DNA of 64,000 nt, from positions 257,840-321,839 of the forward strand of contig CALVWF010000001.1 in the NCBI GenBank assembly GCA_944364615.1, given 5' to 3'. Under the pieces are notes generated by a model. It saw only the letters and a program-made list of their open reading frames with translations. It made no database searches and had not been told where the DNA came from. Below, one piece after another: positions 42,734 through 49,796 of this stretch (its first letter is position 1; each line of letters starts with the position of its first letter). A program made the position numbers and the translations under genes. The DNA is from an uncultured Clostridia bacterium (GTDB taxonomy: Bacteria > Bacillota > Clostridia > Christensenellales > CAG-314).

Positions 42734-42761
42734 AAAAGTCGCCTAATCGGGCGGCTTTTTT
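42734..42761 (+). terminator. Intrinsic terminator upstream of the leader RNA
   Basis: A 10-bp stem (42734-42743 with 42750-42759, one G-U pair), loop TAATCG, followed by six T from 42756. It insulates the downstream promoter and leader from upstream transcription. No plus-strand gene precedes it within the window, so it may be left over from a rearrangement. Confidence 0.65.
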
Positions 42762-42781
42762 CTGTGAAGGAACTTATTATC

Positions 42782-42810
42782 TTGCCTTTTGCGTCTATTT
42801 ATGCTATAGT
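42782..42810 (+). promoter_or_regulatory. Sigma-A-type promoter of the leader RNA and giant surface protein
   Basis: TTGCCT (42782-42787), 17-base spacer, TATAGT (42805-42810). The start of transcription would fall at about 42817, exactly at the first base of the long stem described for the leader RNA. Confidence 0.65.
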
Positions 42811-42816
42811 GTGATT

Positions 42817-42955
42817 GCCACTTAAACTTTATAAATTTACCTAATGAGGTACGAATAGGCATTTCGTATCTCTATTTCCTGTTAGGTAAAAGTTTGAGTG
42901 GCATCAATCGGAGATACAATGCAGGGCGTGTCTTCGGTTGGAGGCACGCTTTTTT
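42817..42955 (+). ncRNA. Structured leader RNA with intrinsic terminator, candidate riboswitch or attenuator
   Basis: About 139 nt between promoter and coding region. Outer stem P1: 42817-42829 with 42890-42902 (13 pairs, one U-G). P2: TTACCTAA 42837-42844 with TTAGGTAA 42882-42889. P3: 42846-42855 with 42863-42872 (10 pairs, one G-U), 7-base loop TAGGCAT. P1 and P2 are separated by a 5' bulge, P2 and P3 by a one-sided 9-base bulge. GAGATAC at 42911-42917 could pair instead with GTATCTC of P3. Then comes a terminator hairpin (42926-42935 with 42940-42949) and TTTTTT at 42950-42955, only 17 bases ahead of the ribosome binding site of the BspA-like gene. I match it to no known riboswitch class; a stand-alone small RNA is the alternative. 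Confidence 0.6.
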
Positions 42956-42986
42956 GCTCTGCGAAATTGGCTCGGAGGGCTATCCT

Positions 42987-45900
42987 ATGAAACGAAAGTT
43001 GGCATTGGTTTTTTTAGCAGTCGTCATGGTTATGGCGGCGGCGTTCGGCTTGGCTGCATGCGGGGATAAACCGGCAGAAAACCTCGACGAATACGAAGAA
43101 TTTGAAACGGTTGTAAAAACCGTCCTCAACAATAGCGTGAACAAGATGGGCGAAGAAGCGGAAGCCGCCGCGTTACGTGCTACATCTTTCAATGTCATGC
43201 CGCTGGCATTTACGCAGGAGGAAAAGGAGGATTTATTCGGCATCATTGACAAATATTCTTCCGATGCCGAAATTATGGAAAAAAACTACGTCAAAGGGAT
43301 GTTTGATCTCGTCACACAGACGACGATGGCATTTCCGCTGATCGCGGGTGACGCGCTACGCACTTATCCGAAAGTGAGCGAATTTTACGGCGTTTCCGTC
43401 GGCTGCCGCGAAGAAGGCGTCTATATCCGTGTGAATAAAGATGAAACGTTATATACAACTTCCGTTTATACCGGCGGCGGAAATTATTCCGAGAGTTACT
43501 ACCGCATGGAGATCGATTACAAGAGCGAAACGGAGTTTTCGTTCATGATATTTCAGGATTCGCCTGCGAATGCGGAAACGAATATGGACGCCTATAAAAT
43601 GTTCTATTACGGCGACAGCGAAATGAATTTTCTCAACGGCATATTCAATGACGAAGGAGGCATGTTTGCCTATTATAAGAGCGGTGTTGACTACGTGCTC
43701 AACTCCGCTGCCGCCGCCAAGGAGATGTACCCGCTGTTGAGCGCGGGCTTTGAAAACGTCGACCGCGAGGAAATAAAAGCGATTGGCGCTGACACCGACC
43801 ATATCGTTACCGCCGAGCAGTGGGCGGAATGCTATCTGAAATATATGAATGGCGGCGAACATTTTGACGGGCAAGACGGACAGTTTGAAATCAAAAACGG
43901 CGTTTTATACGGCTGGATAGGGAAAGAGGAAGATTGCCCTTCCGCGGTTACACTCCCTTCCACGGTCAGCTCTGTCTATTATGAGCTGCGCTTTCCCGAT
44001 CACGTAAAGGAGATCTCCATTCCCGCAACGGTTCAATCGGTAAAAGTTGAGCGCGGAACGCTCGAATGGCTGGAAAGCGGCAACGAAGGGACGGACGAAA
44101 CGCTCGTCGAATGTCCTGTAAAATATTTCACCATCATTTTGAATACGCAGGATGGATCGTATAAATTTCTCGAAAAAATCGACGTGTCCGCGCAGTCTCC
44201 GCTGTTCGAATCGGACGGGAATTTCCTTTATTCCAAAAAAGACGGCATGCTGCTCTATGTGGCGGGCGCGGATAAGCTCACTTCCTTATCCCTTGACACA
44301 GAACTTTCCGACAGAGCATTGATCTGCCTTGCGGGCAGCGATCTTTCAAACCTGAAAACACTCACAGTCAACGAACAGACGGCGGAGGCCGCAACGTATG
44401 CCGTCTTTGATTCCACAAACGGAGAAATCCGACTGAACACGTTCAATATGAATCTTTCGGGAGACATGTTCGGCGGAACGTTCGGGGGAGCAGTCCACTC
44501 GATCGAAACGGTCAACATTACATGCGACAACGTTCAAACGGAGCGGGAAATTGATTTTGAGTGCACTATCGGCACGCTGAACATCGGCGGGAACGGCGTC
44601 TGCCGCATCGATACGACTTCCGTGATACAAAAAGTCAACGCCGATTTTACCGGAACACTCTCGCTGGATTCCATCGACAACGGGCAGATAAAAAACATAG
44701 AACTTTCCGATGGAGTGGAAACATTCACGGCGTTCAGTCCCGTTCCCATGACCGTAACGCTCCCGTATTCGCTGTATGCGTTCAAAGCGGCTGATAAGTA
44801 CAATTTTTCAGATCTTAACAGCCTAATTAGTGAGCTGAACTGGGAAGATTTGCTCGGAAAAACCGAACTCAAAGCTGAGGTCAATCATGACGGCAATGTT
44901 TTTTATCATACATACCGTTTTGCCGCCATGACGAAAGAAGAAGAGATAGAATGTAAAAAATTTGCAGACTTTAAGGATGTCTATTATTATACGGCGGAAG
45001 AATCGGAGTACGGCGTGCTGTACGCAAAACTTTCCTGCTATTGGGGAGATGACAGCATCGTTAATGTGCCGGAAACAATCAACGGGTATCCCGTATTGGA
45101 ATTTGAACTTGCAACGCATCCTTCATGGGGCGGATACCCTCCGGTGTCGGTGGAGAATGTAAAAGAAGTACATTTGCCTGCTTCTCTGAAAAAGTTTGAT
45201 ATAATGAATTGGTCAGCTGACGAAAAGCAATATGCTTTGGAAAAAATCGTCTTTGGCGGAACGAAAGAAGAATTTTTGAAAATCATTAACGATATAGATT
45301 TTTATGCCCTATATTCCATGCTGGAATATACCGATGAAATAGAATGTAAGGACGGAACATTTACACAACAACCTATGCGGGAAAGCTGGTTCTTTGCTGA
45401 TGAAAACGATAATATTTTGCAAATAGACCTCGATTGGAGCGAATACGATACAAATTACAATGTAAAAGAAATTCAAGTCAGGCTCGTCTATAACGGAAAT
45501 GAATATTTCGTACACGATTTTAATCGAAATCCAAACCTATATTTCCAATTCGGTAACGGCGAAACTGCCGAAGGGGAAATGAAGGACTATATTTCAGTCC
45601 AATTTGAAGCAACTCAGTACGACAGTGAAATCAATCGAAAAGTTATTAAAAATTTACAAGTTTATTATAGCGCAATCGGTGATTTGAATTTTACTCTCGT
45701 TTCGACGGAAGAATTTACGGGAACGATCGAGCACGATTTTTCCGTATCGCATACGCGCGAGCCGGATTGCTTGGCCGGCGGTGGCACCGATTGGTATTGC
45801 TCCGTGTGTGGGATGTTCGGTTACGTTACGGACGAAGAACCGCCCCTCGGGCATGACTCCGATGAATACGGCACATGTAGCCGCTGCGGTCAGAATACTT

Positions 45901-48900
45901 ACTTTGACTTTGATTCCTATATCGACGATTACGGGCAGGAAGCGTACGCGTTGGTGCGCGTAAAGGAAGACTGTAAAACCGCAGCCGAGCTGCGCGTACC
46001 GGAAGAAGTAAACAGCGTACCCGTCAGAAAAATCAATTACGGAGCATTCGCAGGATGTTACGAGCTGGAGAGGGTGTATTTGCCCTCGACTTTGGTATCC
46101 TACGAAGCTGATGCCTTCCGCGATTGTAGCAACCTACGCGAGGTACATATCGACAACGTTGCCGCCTGGTTCGGCATTGCTTTTGAAAATCGGGAAGCAA
46201 GTCCTCTGAATACGGGCGCAGCCCTGTATTACGGCGGCGGGAAGATCACCGATCTCGTCATTCCGGACGGGGTCACAAAGATCGGCGATTACACGTTGGC
46301 TAACTGCGATCTAAACAGCATCACGATTCCTGAAAGCGTCGTTGCGATCGGCGATTATGCGTTCCAGGGCAATTGCAGCATCCGGAATGCGACCGTAACT
46401 GCCTTTGCTGCGTACAAAATTCCCAAAAGCTCTCTGCTAGCGGTTACTGTTACGGGCGGAGAACTGACCGATGGCGTATTTTACGATTGTCCGGTTCTGG
46501 AAAGCGTCGTTCTGGCGAACGGTATACAGGCGATTTCCAACTATGCGTTCCAAAATTCAGCCATGCTTACGAGTATCGATATTCCGGAAAGCGTGACGTC
46601 GATCGGGTACGAGGCTTTCAGCGGATGCGCCAGCCTTACACAAATAACCCTGCCGAGCGGACTGCGGGAAATCGTTTCGTCTCTGTTTTACGGGTGCACA
46701 GGCCTTGAACAGGTCGTGATCCCGGAAGGCGTTGCAAGGATAGGACAGCAGGCGTTTTACGGCTGCAGCGGCCTTACAAGCATCACTCTCCCTGCTTCCG
46801 TAACCGCGGTGGACAACATGGCGTTCGGTGGCTGCGATAACCTGCAGAAGGTATGTATCGACGACCTCGCCGCATGGTGCAATATCGAATTTACGGACGG
46901 AGAGTCAAACCCGCTGTTCAAAGCGCAGTATCTGTATCTGAAAGGGGAAAAGGCTGAGTATATCGAGATTCCTGACGGTGTTGAGCAGATCAAACAGTTA
47001 GCGTTTTTCGGGTATAAAAATTTGCGGGGCGTCGTCATTCCCGACAGCGTGACGGAAATCGACAGTTCTTCATTTGAAGATTGCAGCAACTTGAAAAGCG
47101 TAGAAACGCCTGCTTTTGCAATATCGTATATTCCGACATCAAGTTTAAAAACGGTTGCCATAACCAGCGGGGAAGAACTTCCATGGGGAGCTTTTAGGGC
47201 CGCCGCTTTCTTGACGAGCGTCTCTCTGTCAGACAGCGTAACGAAGATTGGCAGAGAAGCTTTCAGCGGCTGTTCGTCGCTTGAAGCGATAGAATTGCCC
47301 GGCCTTTTGACGGATATCGAATACTGTGCGTTTGAAAACTGCACATCACTTGTCTCCGTCACGATTCCGAACAGCGTTACGCAAATTGACCAATATGCTT
47401 TCAGAGGCTGTTCAAACTTGCAGAGTGTTTCGTTGCCTGCTATTGCGGCGGTTTGTTTTACAGAGCACGAGTTGCTATCGGTAACAATAACCGGCGGGGA
47501 GAAAATTCCCGCGAATGCCTTCCAAAACTGTACCAGTCTTGAGACGCTTGTTCTTAAAGAGGGTATCGGGACGATCGGTTCATATGCTTTTGCCGGCTGT
47601 ACTTCGTTGGAGCGGATTAGTATTCCTGCCAGCGTAACTTTTATGGAAGCGTATGTGTTTAATGATTGCACGGGGTTAAAGGAGGTTGTATTCGCTGCTG
47701 AAACAAGACTTGAGTACGGTCGCGGATTTGAAGGTTGCATGAATATCGAATCGGCAACGTGCTTTGCCGATATGATGTACTATCTGCCGCAAGATAGTCT
47801 GCAAACGGCAAATATCATCGGCGGCAGCACGATAAGCAACGATACGTTTTATAATGCTACTCATCTCCGCGAGATCCACATTTCTGACGGCATCAGAGAG
47901 ATCGGCGCGCGCGCTTTCTCCGGTTGCGTTAATCTGTCAAGCCTTGAAATTCCCGATTCGGTTACAAGTATAGGGGAACATGCTTTCTCTAACTGCGGGG
48001 TGAAGGAATTAATTCTGTCTTCTGCGGTTGAGTCTGTCGGGTATGCCTGCTTTGCAGATAGCATTGCGCTCGAATCGGTCATCTTCGAAGAGGGCGCGTC
48101 TATATCCGTACTTGAAAAAACTTTATTTATGGGTTGCGTCAACCTTAGGCGTTTGGTTCTGCCCCAAATCTCCGATGGAATCGAGCCAGACGCGCTGGTA
48201 GACTGCACAAAACTGGAAGAGCTTTCTGTCCCGTTTGTCGGGCAGAATGCCGAGGGGACTGGAGCAACGAATTTAGGGTACCTGTTCGGCGACGAAACGG
48301 ATAATTATTCCACGGTTCCGAGTAGCCTCAAAAAGGTATGTGTCAGCGGAAGTTATCCGATCCCGGACGAGGCGTTTGATTCTTGTCGGTTTATCGAGGA
48401 GGTAATCCTTTCTACTGAGATCCGTCAGATCGGCGCAAACGCGTTTGCTCGTTGCGTGAATCTCGCAGTTATATCCTTTGGTGAGAACAGCGCACTGCAA
48501 ACGATTGGGGTTGGCGCTTTTACCGGCTGCTATGATCTGGTCGCTGTTGTGATTCCGTCGGGAGTTTATCAGTTGGGTGAAGTCGCGTTTATGAATTGTA
48601 GGGAACTGAAAACGGTCGTATTTGAAGCAAACGACCTGTTGCAGACTATTGAACGGATGACATTTGCCGGATGTTCGGGCCTGACCGGTATTGCGATTCC
48701 CGCAAGCGTGACGCAGCTCGGTGTTTCGGCGTTTTCCGGTTGTTCGGTTTTGGAGAGCATCAATATTCCGCAGGGTGTCACAAAACTTCCTGACAATGTT
48801 TTTGCCGGATGTGGATTCAGAACGCTGACGTTCGGCGCAGACTGTACAATCACCGAAATCGGCGAGTTTGCCTTCATGGGCTGTTCCCGTTTGGAATCTG

Positions 48901-49796
48901 TCCGGTTTAGCGAAGGAAGCAAAGTCAGAAGCATTGGAAAGAATGCGTTTTCCGGGTGCGACCTTTTGAATACTGTCGAGCTTCCCGAAGGTTTGATAAC
49001 GCTTGGCGAGAGTGCATTCATGCAATGCTTCGCTTTAAAAACGGTGTCGTTCGGAGAGGAGAGCGCGTTGGAATCACTCGGAATGTTTGCTTTTTACGGT
49101 TGTGTAAGCCTTGTCGACATCTGTATTCCTGAAAAGATAACCGAAATCGCGAACTCAACATTTTACGGGTGCAGCGCCCTTGTATCCGTCGAATTTTCAG
49201 AAAACCTCGTAAAAATCGGAAGCCATGCTTTCTTGATGTGTGAAATGCTTACGGATGTCGTATTGCCGGAAAGTCTGGTTACGATTGAGGCGGAGGTATT
49301 CTTAGGTTGCAGCGCCCTTAGGCAGATTTCCATTCCCGAAAGCGTTACGTCGATCGGTTCCGGTGCGTTTCAAGGATCGGGGCTTACCGATGTTGTTCTC
49401 GGCGGCAGCGGAACGACGATTGCTGCCGGTGCTTTTTATCAGTGTACTGCGCTTCAAAACGTTACTTTCCGGAACGGAACCACATCCATAAACGGATTCA
49501 GTGCATGCAATAATCTGAAAAATATTATTATTCCCGCCAGTGTAACTGCCATTGCTGATTACGCTTTTACCGATTCGGGTTTGACGATCGGTGATTCCGT
49601 CAATATCTTCTATGACGGAACAAGCGAACAGTGGAACAGCGTCGAAATCGGCACGGAAAACGATATACTGGATGTCGCCATTGTATATTATTACAGCGAT
49701 ACGCCCCCGGAAGATGATGGAAACTATTGGCATTATGCCAAAGATAATGTAACTCCGATTATTTGGGTTAAAGGAGAAGGGATTTACTCAGTTTGA
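42987..49796 (+). CDS. Giant BspA-like leucine-rich repeat lipoprotein
   Basis: A 2,269-residue surface lipoprotein. The start ATG at 42987 follows GGAGG, and the signal peptide MKRKLALVFLA... ends in lipobox LAAC (Cys25), so an upstream in-frame ATG at 42894, inside the leader RNA, is rejected. Residues about 30-330 are a unique N-terminal domain; about 340-950 contain diverged repeats; about 950-1000 hold a Cys/His-rich zinc-ribbon-like element (DWYCSVCG, GTCSRCGQ); from about 1030 to the C-terminus there are dozens of LRR_5/BspA repeats of about 23 residues (IPESVTSIGYEAFSGCASL type). Such proteins mediate adhesion. Base composition is visibly richer in G+C than in its neighbours, suggesting transfer. 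Confidence 0.9.
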   Translation: MKRKLALVFLAVVMVMAAAFGLAACGDKPAENLDEYEEFETVVKTVLNNSVNKMGEEAEAAALRATSFNVMPLAFTQEEKEDLFGIIDKYSSDAEIMEKNYVKGMFDLVTQTTMAFPLIAGDALRTYPKVSEFYGVSVGCREEGVYIRVNKDETLYTTSVYTGGGNYSESYYRMEIDYKSETEFSFMIFQDSPANAETNMDAYKMFYYGDSEMNFLNGIFNDEGGMFAYYKSGVDYVLNSAAAAKEMYPLLSAGFENVDREEIKAIGADTDHIVTAEQWAECYLKYMNGGEHFDGQDGQFEIKNGVLYGWIGKEEDCPSAVTLPSTVSSVYYELRFPDHVKEISIPATVQSVKVERGTLEWLESGNEGTDETLVECPVKYFTIILNTQDGSYKFLEKIDVSAQSPLFESDGNFLYSKKDGMLLYVAGADKLTSLSLDTELSDRALICLAGSDLSNLKTLTVNEQTAEAATYAVFDSTNGEIRLNTFNMNLSGDMFGGTFGGAVHSIETVNITCDNVQTEREIDFECTIGTLNIGGNGVCRIDTTSVIQKVNADFTGTLSLDSIDNGQIKNIELSDGVETFTAFSPVPMTVTLPYSLYAFKAADKYNFSDLNSLISELNWEDLLGKTELKAEVNHDGNVFYHTYRFAAMTKEEEIECKKFADFKDVYYYTAEESEYGVLYAKLSCYWGDDSIVNVPETINGYPVLEFELATHPSWGGYPPVSVENVKEVHLPASLKKFDIMNWSADEKQYALEKIVFGGTKEEFLKIINDIDFYALYSMLEYTDEIECKDGTFTQQPMRESWFFADENDNILQIDLDWSEYDTNYNVKEIQVRLVYNGNEYFVHDFNRNPNLYFQFGNGETAEGEMKDYISVQFEATQYDSEINRKVIKNLQVYYSAIGDLNFTLVSTEEFTGTIEHDFSVSHTREPDCLAGGGTDWYCSVCGMFGYVTDEEPPLGHDSDEYGTCSRCGQNTYFDFDSYIDDYGQEAYALVRVKEDCKTAAELRVPEEVNSVPVRKINYGAFAGCYELERVYLPSTLVSYEADAFRDCSNLREVHIDNVAAWFGIAFENREASPLNTGAALYYGGGKITDLVIPDGVTKIGDYTLANCDLNSITIPESVVAIGDYAFQGNCSIRNATVTAFAAYKIPKSSLLAVTVTGGELTDGVFYDCPVLESVVLANGIQAISNYAFQNSAMLTSIDIPESVTSIGYEAFSGCASLTQITLPSGLREIVSSLFYGCTGLEQVVIPEGVARIGQQAFYGCSGLTSITLPASVTAVDNMAFGGCDNLQKVCIDDLAAWCNIEFTDGESNPLFKAQYLYLKGEKAEYIEIPDGVEQIKQLAFFGYKNLRGVVIPDSVTEIDSSSFEDCSNLKSVETPAFAISYIPTSSLKTVAITSGEELPWGAFRAAAFLTSVSLSDSVTKIGREAFSGCSSLEAIELPGLLTDIEYCAFENCTSLVSVTIPNSVTQIDQYAFRGCSNLQSVSLPAIAAVCFTEHELLSVTITGGEKIPANAFQNCTSLETLVLKEGIGTIGSYAFAGCTSLERISIPASVTFMEAYVFNDCTGLKEVVFAAETRLEYGRGFEGCMNIESATCFADMMYYLPQDSLQTANIIGGSTISNDTFYNATHLREIHISDGIREIGARAFSGCVNLSSLEIPDSVTSIGEHAFSNCGVKELILSSAVESVGYACFADSIALESVIFEEGASISVLEKTLFMGCVNLRRLVLPQISDGIEPDALVDCTKLEELSVPFVGQNAEGTGATNLGYLFGDETDNYSTVPSSLKKVCVSGSYPIPDEAFDSCRFIEEVILSTEIRQIGANAFARCVNLAVISFGENSALQTIGVGAFTGCYDLVAVVIPSGVYQLGEVAFMNCRELKTVVFEANDLLQTIERMTFAGCSGLTGIAIPASVTQLGVSAFSGCSVLESINIPQGVTKLPDNVFAGCGFRTLTFGADCTITEIGEFAFMGCSRLESVRFSEGSKVRSIGKNAFSGCDLLNTVELPEGLITLGESAFMQCFALKTVSFGEESALESLGMFAFYGCVSLVDICIPEKITEIANSTFYGCSALVSVEFSENLVKIGSHAFLMCEMLTDVVLPESLVTIEAEVFLGCSALRQISIPESVTSIGSGAFQGSGLTDVVLGGSGTTIAAGAFYQCTALQNVTFRNGTTSINGFSACNNLKNIIIPASVTAIADYAFTDSGLTIGDSVNIFYDGTSEQWNSVEIGTENDILDVAIVYYYSDTPPEDDGNYWHYAKDNVTPIIWVKGEGIYSV

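What the first reader, a model, noticed from the sequence alone, without database searches (positions are those of the whole stretch)
42782..42986. Structured leader RNA with terminator ahead of the giant BspA-like gene
A good promoter starts transcription at the first base of a three-part long hairpin; an intrinsic terminator follows and the ribosome binding site comes 17 bases later. This is the layout of a riboswitch or attenuator, but the fold matches no class that I know. GAGATAC at 42911-42917 can pair with one strand of the apical stem, offering a second fold. Control of a 2,269-residue adhesin by a leader RNA would be biologically sensible.
Basis: partly seen in the sequence, partly recalled or inferred. 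Interest (0 to 1): 0.7.

Follow-up and report, generated by a model that had tools for sequence, protein, structure and literature searches.

The report
New leader-RNA switch for surface proteins
The stretch in front of a giant surface-protein gene is a member of a large, apparently undescribed family of RNA switches that sit at the start of messages for surface proteins in gut Clostridia, and the bases show that each can fold either to stop the message early or to let it be made.

Summary
A sigma-70-type promoter (TTGCCT-17-TATAGT) starts a 140-nt leader at window 42816-42955: a long hairpin, a linker, an intrinsic terminator, then RBS and the BspA-like lipoprotein gene. The leader is single-copy in this genome, but covariance models built here found well over 100 relatives in the class Clostridia (this order, Christensenellales/Borkfalkia relatives, and other orders), up to 11 per genome. 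Apart from the window's own genome there were none in 398 genomes drawn from the phylum, and there is no Rfam match.

Terminator and antiterminator are nearly isoenergetic. Downstream genes are mostly lipoproteins (63/94 versus 22/340 background), and half are BspA LRR proteins.

Best reading: a cis-acting transcription attenuator (orphan riboswitch-like RNA). A:B + C:D permits readthrough; B:C + D:E terminates. The folds are shown by covariation. The signal, the polarity and actual readthrough are inferred. A few copies stand alone, so a trans role is not excluded.

The parts
42782..42810 (+). sigma-70-type promoter (TTGCCT, 17 nt, TATAGT, extended TG)
   Evidence: Consensus scan. The -10 box ends 4 nt before the model start in 119 of 139 relatives, and 81% score at least 9/12 against 6% of shuffles.
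42816..42829 (+). P1, 5' arm; first transcribed bases (TSS about 42817, predicted)
   Evidence: P1 has 95% paired cells and 13 of 13 pairs with changes on both sides; partner-swap z -18.0.
42839..42845 (+). P2, 5' arm (partner 42882-42887)
   Evidence: MFE; P2/P3 partner-swap z -19.9.
42846..42855 (+). strand A, 5' arm of the apical stem P3 (GAGGTACGAA)
   Evidence: MFE; covariation of P2/P3.
42859..42872 (+). strand B: GCATT-TC-GTATCTC, pairs with A (P3, through 42863-42872) or with C (P4)
   Evidence: B:C paired in 84% of cells (core 97%), 38 double changes against 15.7 in shuffles, 0/500; partner-swap z -8.3, and -4.9 in other orders.
42873..42881 (+). U-rich 3' bulge between P3 and P2, recurring in relatives
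   Evidence: Sequence comparison.
42882..42887 (+). P2, 3' arm (TTAGGT)
   Evidence: MFE.
42890..42903 (+). P1, 3' arm
   Evidence: Covariation.
42905..42922 (+). strand C, linker CAATCGGAGATAC-AATGC: pairs with B (P4), or as antiterminator (42905-42917) with D
   Evidence: C:D paired in 91% of cells, 57 double changes, 0/500 shuffles; partner-swap z -12.3, and -6.2 in other orders.
42926..42940 (+). strand D: 5' arm (42926-42935) and loop of the terminator; 42928-42940 is the antiterminator partner of C
42940..42955 (+). strand E (42940-42949) and T-tract (42950-42955) of the intrinsic terminator
   Evidence: Terminator scan; D:E 98.7% paired cells, 9 of 10 pairs with double changes.
42974..42978 (+). 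Shine-Dalgarno GGAGG of the downstream gene
   Evidence: Sequence.
42987..49796 (+). regulated gene: 2,269-aa BspA-like lipoprotein with signal MKRKLALVFLAVVMVMAAAFGLAAC
   Evidence: Translation. Relatives' downstream proteins are LRR_5 in 43 of 83.

Best explanation
It is a cis-acting transcription attenuator: a family of 5' leader RNAs that decide, by mutually exclusive folds, whether RNA polymerase stops at a terminator or reads through into a surface-protein gene. Shown here by comparative sequence evidence: promoter at fixed spacing, hairpin P1-P2-P3, terminator D:E, a competing antiterminator C:D, and a competing helix B:C between the hairpin's apical strand and the linker. Inferred: with the hairpin intact (A:B), the linker C pairs with D, the terminator cannot form and the gene is transcribed. 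When the apical strand B captures C (a pseudoknot with P1 in place, P2 bent back or opened), D is freed, the terminator forms and transcription stops. A signal acting on the P1-P2-P3 hairpin, most likely a small ligand or an RNA-binding protein, sets the balance. The regulon is mainly exported lipoproteins, above all BspA-type LRR proteins.
For: DNA and covariance searches found relatives in other genera, families and orders. Partner-swap test on 37 non-redundant members: P1 z -18, P2/P3 -19.9, D:E -12.5, C:D -12.3, B:C -8.3; controls C:E -1.2, C:P1 -0.7, B:D +0.5. An independent replicate on 18 other-order members gives C:D -6.2 and B:C -4.9 with controls at -1.3 to +0.2. Column counts agree. 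Terminator and antiterminator are nearly isoenergetic (mean difference -1.4 kcal/mol over 37; window -16.7 antiterminator, -14.9 terminator). The promoter places the start at P1. In the Christensenellales set 99 of 121 are followed by an RBS and ORF; lipoprotein signals 63/94 against 22/340 background (Fisher p about 2e-33). LRR_5 in 43/83. Other orders also precede BspA-like, RCC1-like or lipoprotein genes.
Against: No RNA-seq, term-seq or in vitro data. The direction of regulation is inferred. B:C requires the apical strand to reach the linker past P1/P2, so a bend or opening of P2 is needed and was not tested. Some copies (G005/L031, G748/L228) have no sense gene behind them. Tandem units each carry their own promoter and terminator. 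Orthologues of this gene in G001 and G007 lack the leader, so it is not essential to the gene.
Confidence: 0.8

Rival explanations
1. A metabolite- or ion-binding riboswitch: the P1-P2-P3 hairpin with its asymmetric P1/P2 junction and U-rich bulge is an aptamer whose ligand controls the B:C/A:B choice. This is a special case of the best explanation.
For: Recurrent sequence features inside the hairpin (N-AUA after P1, U-rich bulge, CAA after P1), many copies per genome in front of unrelated genes, poised expression platform.
Against: Few invariant unpaired bases; most conserved bases are explained by the competing helices. Target genes do not point to a metabolic pathway. c-di-GMP, the obvious surface-protein signal, is unlikely: no GGDEF protein was found in 6 of 10 leader-bearing genomes, including this one.
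Confidence: 0.45
2. Protein-controlled attenuation: an RNA-binding protein recognises the conserved P1 (GYSACACAA/UUGUGUSGC) or the linker and sets terminator against antiterminator, as LicT/SacY or PyrR do.
For: P1 keeps its sequence CACAA/UUGUG far beyond what pairing needs, which suits a protein recognising a duplex.
Against: No candidate protein identified; downstream genes are not RNA-binding proteins (the zinc ribbons are mostly N-terminal parts of larger proteins). P1 does covary at several positions.
Confidence: 0.27
3. A stand-alone trans-acting small RNA gene with its own promoter and terminator that merely tends to lie before surface-protein genes.
For: Own promoter and terminator; tandem units; copies with no sense gene behind them (L031, L228/L232); the terminated product would be about 140 nt.
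Against: Most copies end 10-45 nt before an RBS and start codon. A covarying antiterminator has no obvious use in a terminated sRNA.
Confidence: 0.1
4. Leader-peptide attenuation, with a ribosome starting at the linker GGAG...AUG and translating through the terminator.
For: GGAG followed by AUG/GUG occurs in the linker of about half of the non-redundant members; in the window it gives MQGVSSVGGTLF..., whose TGA stop overlaps the adhesin's ATG.
Against: 18 of 37 lack it and the reading frame is not conserved (MQGV against MQAC). The GGAG is already explained by pairing with B and D.
Confidence: 0.04
5. A mobile inverted-repeat element or structured-DNA site (MITE, attC-like).
For: Long hairpin, multiple copies in some genomes, near-identical tandem copies in G748.
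Against: Single copy here. Different members covary in helices that compete with one another, which DNA hairpin function does not need. Promoter at fixed spacing and sense orientation to genes.
Confidence: 0.03

Closest known systems
SLH motif (riboswitch candidate upstream of S-layer homology genes; PMC6429828)
   Same: Leader RNA candidate before surface-protein genes in Clostridia and other groups, ligand unknown.
   Different: The SLH motif was reported mainly from Synergistaceae, Clostridia and Negativicutes with 80 examples, about 60% before SLH-domain genes; here the targets are BspA LRR lipoproteins. Its alignment was not available to compare directly, and no Rfam family matches.
Terminator/antiterminator riboswitches with a third competing pairing (SAM-I type expression platform)
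   Same: Terminator, antiterminator and anti-antiterminator strands compete.
   Different: No known aptamer matches; the anti-antiterminator is a long-range pairing of the leader's own apical strand with the linker.
trp-type attenuators (1:2, 2:3, 3:4 logic)
   Same: Four strands A-B-C-D plus E with alternating pairings.
   Different: No conserved leader peptide or regulatory codons.
T-box leaders
   Same: 5' leader with terminator/antiterminator in Clostridia.
   Different: No T-box hit at the element, although the same Rfam scan found a real T-box elsewhere in a fetched locus.
c-di-GMP riboswitches controlling adhesins in Clostridioides (from general knowledge)
   Same: Surface-protein regulon under leader RNAs.
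   Different: Rfam models do not match; no GGDEF found in 6 of 10 carrier genomes.

Membership tests
Any described Rfam family (release 15) | Score above the curated gathering threshold | tested here: not met
   No hit in the window or at the element in 20 other-order loci; permissive scans give only scattered sub-threshold matches.
Transcription attenuator leader (kind, not family) | Promoter, leader, intrinsic terminator, then RBS and gene on the same strand | tested here: met
Transcription attenuator leader (kind, not family) | Conserved antiterminator that excludes the terminator | tested here: met
   C:D covariation, near-equal energies.
Transcription attenuator leader (kind, not family) | Condition-dependent readthrough | not testable with these tools
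   Needs term-seq or in vitro transcription.
Riboswitch | Direct ligand binding by the RNA | not testable with these tools
   Needs in-line probing or equivalent.
Riboswitch | Conserved aptamer fold next to an expression platform | tested here: inconclusive
   Conserved hairpin and platform, but few invariant unpaired bases.
T-box | T-box core recognised by its covariance model | tested here: not met
   No hit at the element.
Leader-peptide attenuator | Conserved short ORF with SD in the leader | tested here: not met
   18 of 37 lack a GGRG plus start in the linker, and the frame is not conserved.
c-di-GMP riboswitch | c-di-GMP made by the host (GGDEF) | tested here: not met
   None found in 6 of 10 carrier genomes, including the window's and three of 98-99% completeness.
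Mobile inverted-repeat element | Dispersed near-identical copies | tested here: not met
   Single copy here; copies elsewhere usually differ strongly, with local tandem exceptions.

The most novel reading that the evidence does not exclude
A previously undescribed orphan riboswitch class, spread over several orders of Clostridia, whose unknown ligand coordinates a whole set of exported lipoproteins and BspA-type surface proteins through a pseudoknot-gated terminator/antiterminator switch.
Probability: 0.45. Interest if true: 0.88.

Novelty: new variant of a known kind. Interest (0 to 1): 0.77.

Why it matters
BspA-type LRR proteins and other surface lipoproteins are abundant in uncultured gut Clostridia, and almost nothing is known about how they are controlled. 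A leader-RNA family with well over 100 members found here, clear competing folds and a consistent regulon gives a testable handle: find the signal and one learns what these bacteria sense when they change their surface. It also adds a large family that Rfam release 15 does not hold.

Tried and rejected
Rfam scans, strict and permissive: no family. Plasmid searches: nothing. Phage records: nothing for the window's own leader; one other-order member matched two unannotated fecal phage-labelled contigs, one of which has a full leader before a lipoprotein gene. Viral contig patterns: 0 and 3 hits, and the 3 do not match the model. Low-scoring R1/R2 hits below about 40 bits were distrusted because the antisense strand of the hairpin scores 26-28 bits. 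The four loci of unrelated phyla in the pattern scan did not match the model, a useful negative control. A first context script with exact arm matching failed and was replaced. Literature searches found no description of this element; the library is open-access only, so absence is weak evidence. c-di-GMP as a universal ligand was rejected; c-di-AMP synthase is in all ten genomes but tells nothing, since it is widespread in Firmicutes.

Full report
WHAT IS THERE. The window sequence from 42782 holds a promoter (TTGCCT, 17 nt, TATAGT), a long three-part hairpin (42816-42903), a 22-nt linker, a terminator (42926-42949 plus T6), an SD at 42974-42978 and ATG 42987. The fold is far more stable than shuffles (z -7.2, 0/200). 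The gene encodes a 2,269-aa BspA-like lipoprotein. The leader occurs once in this 1.69-Mb genome and matches no Rfam family.

RELATIVES. A DNA search of 151 related genomes found strong matches in G005, G068 (two) and G138, centred not on the hairpin's outer stem but on the apical 3' strand, the linker and the terminator. Five sequences gave model R1, which hit 90 of 396 genomes of the order at E <= 0.01, up to 7 copies each (hits under about 40 bits are doubtful because the antisense strand scores 26-28 bits). A pattern scan of the genome collection gave 107 stretches, mostly uncultured Clostridia including Candidatus Borkfalkia, Gallimonas and Coproplasma. 76 of the 80 fetched loci contain the full or end-truncated RNA; the four that do not are a spirochaete, a Zixibacteria, a Phycisphaerae and an archaeal contig, the expected chance hits. 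Model R2 (101 members) hit 84 of 391 genomes of the class, most of them in other orders. In a draw of 398 genomes from the phylum it hit only the window's own; these larger searches use stricter filters that lose weak matches. Sensitive searches of single genomes gave up to 11 copies.

ANATOMY. Members are 131-174 nt in the non-redundant set. P1 has the form GYSACACAA...UUGUGUSGC and starts at the transcription start: the -10 box ends 4 nt before the model start in 119 of 139 members, and 81% have at least 9 of 12 sigma-70 matches against 6% of shuffles. Inside lie P2 and the apical stem P3 (A:B), with a U-rich 3' bulge. The linker C begins (A/G)CAAU in most members. Its first 13 bases pair with the terminator's 5' arm and loop (C:D), and its second part pairs with the apical strand B. 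In other orders the sequence changes (apical GGUAAAAAUGCA, linker UGCAUUUUU) but the pairings persist.

COVARIATION. Own-partner duplex energies were compared with swapped partners in 37 members under 80% identical. z is -18.0 for P1, -19.9 for P2/P3, -12.5 for D:E, -12.3 for C:D and -8.3 for B:C. Three control pairings on the same sequences, hence the same tree, give -1.2, -0.7 and +0.5. Eighteen non-redundant members from other orders, not used to build the models, give -6.2 for C:D and -4.9 for B:C, with controls between -1.3 and +0.2. Column counts agree: C:D 91.1% of cells paired with 57 double changes (shuffles 14.5, 0/500); B:C 84.3% with 38 (15.7, 0/500), core helix 97%; P1 94.7% and terminator 98.7%. 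A:B/B:C and C:D/D:E are mutually exclusive by sharing B and D; B:C and C:D overlap within C. This is the signature of a switch and not of a static fold.

MECHANISM. In isolation the antiterminator (linker plus D) averages -15.7 and the terminator -14.3 kcal/mol over 37 members; in the window -16.7 and -14.9. C and D are transcribed before E, so C:D can form first. Holding B open costs 7.3 kcal/mol on average and B:C returns 16.4, before any loop penalty. Inferred logic: hairpin closed, C:D, readthrough; B captures C, D:E, termination. B:C is compatible with P1 if P2 bends back or opens; full coaxial P1-P2 would keep B too far from C. Which state the signal favours is not known.

REGULON. Among 121 distinct leaders of the Christensenellales set, 99 have an RBS and ORF directly behind; several of the 17 without are lipoprotein genes that the script's RBS rule missed, and about half look stand-alone. 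Lipoprotein signals: 63/94 against 22/340 for other ORFs of the same loci (odds ratio 29, p about 2e-33). Of 83 downstream proteins, 43 match BspA-type LRR_5 and 13 match zinc ribbons. Other orders precede BspA-like, RCC1-like and small proteins. A fecal phage-labelled contig carries a leader and a lipoprotein gene. Orthologues of the window's gene in G001 and G007 have no leader, so the leader is a module that genes gain or lose.

SIGNAL. c-di-GMP is unlikely as a general ligand: GGDEF was not found in 6 of 10 carriers. c-di-AMP synthase is present in all ten but is uninformative. No leader peptide is conserved. The choice between small ligand and protein remains open.

NOVELTY. No Rfam family, and nothing in the papers that could be searched, describes it. 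The nearest published idea is the SLH motif, another leader candidate before surface-protein genes (PMC6429828). The logic is that of known attenuators and riboswitches, so it is filed as a new variant of a known kind, with the sensor unknown.

Noticed in passing
window 42736-42762: A second hairpin with a T-run on the + strand (GTCGCC...GGGCGGC-TTTTTT) just before the leader's promoter, with no + strand ORF of 100 aa or more before it; R2 does not recognise it as a family member.
   Followed up: partly
L095 3806-4151; L137 1553-1894; L107 3623-3970; L230 1235-1637; L229 1288-1672; L222 1291-1669: Tandem leader units before one gene; in the two read in full (L095, L137) each unit has its own promoter and terminator.
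   Followed up: partly
L228 and L232 (G748 contig C33): Two tandem leaders with identical terminators and no sense ORF behind them, possibly a stand-alone RNA.
   Followed up: no
L031 1501-1644 (G005 contig C9): A leader whose downstream neighbour is a convergent sensor-kinase-like gene, so no gene to control in cis.
   Followed up: partly
L242 2074-2230 (MT835845.1): A fecal contig deposited as bacteriophage carries a full leader followed by a lipoprotein gene.
   Followed up: partly
L230 and L235 (G138): Two near-identical 88-aa, possibly thioredoxin-like proteins, each behind a leader of the family.
   Followed up: no
L036, L043, L061, L070, L072, L077, L100, L103, L109, L128: Many leaders precede proteins that begin with a double zinc ribbon (MNKCPNCGTEFEGKFCPECG); their role is unknown.
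   Followed up: no
window 42920-42989: A 23-codon ORF starts in the linker (ATGCAGGGC...), runs through the terminator and ends in TGA overlapping the adhesin's ATG; not conserved in relatives.
   Followed up: yes
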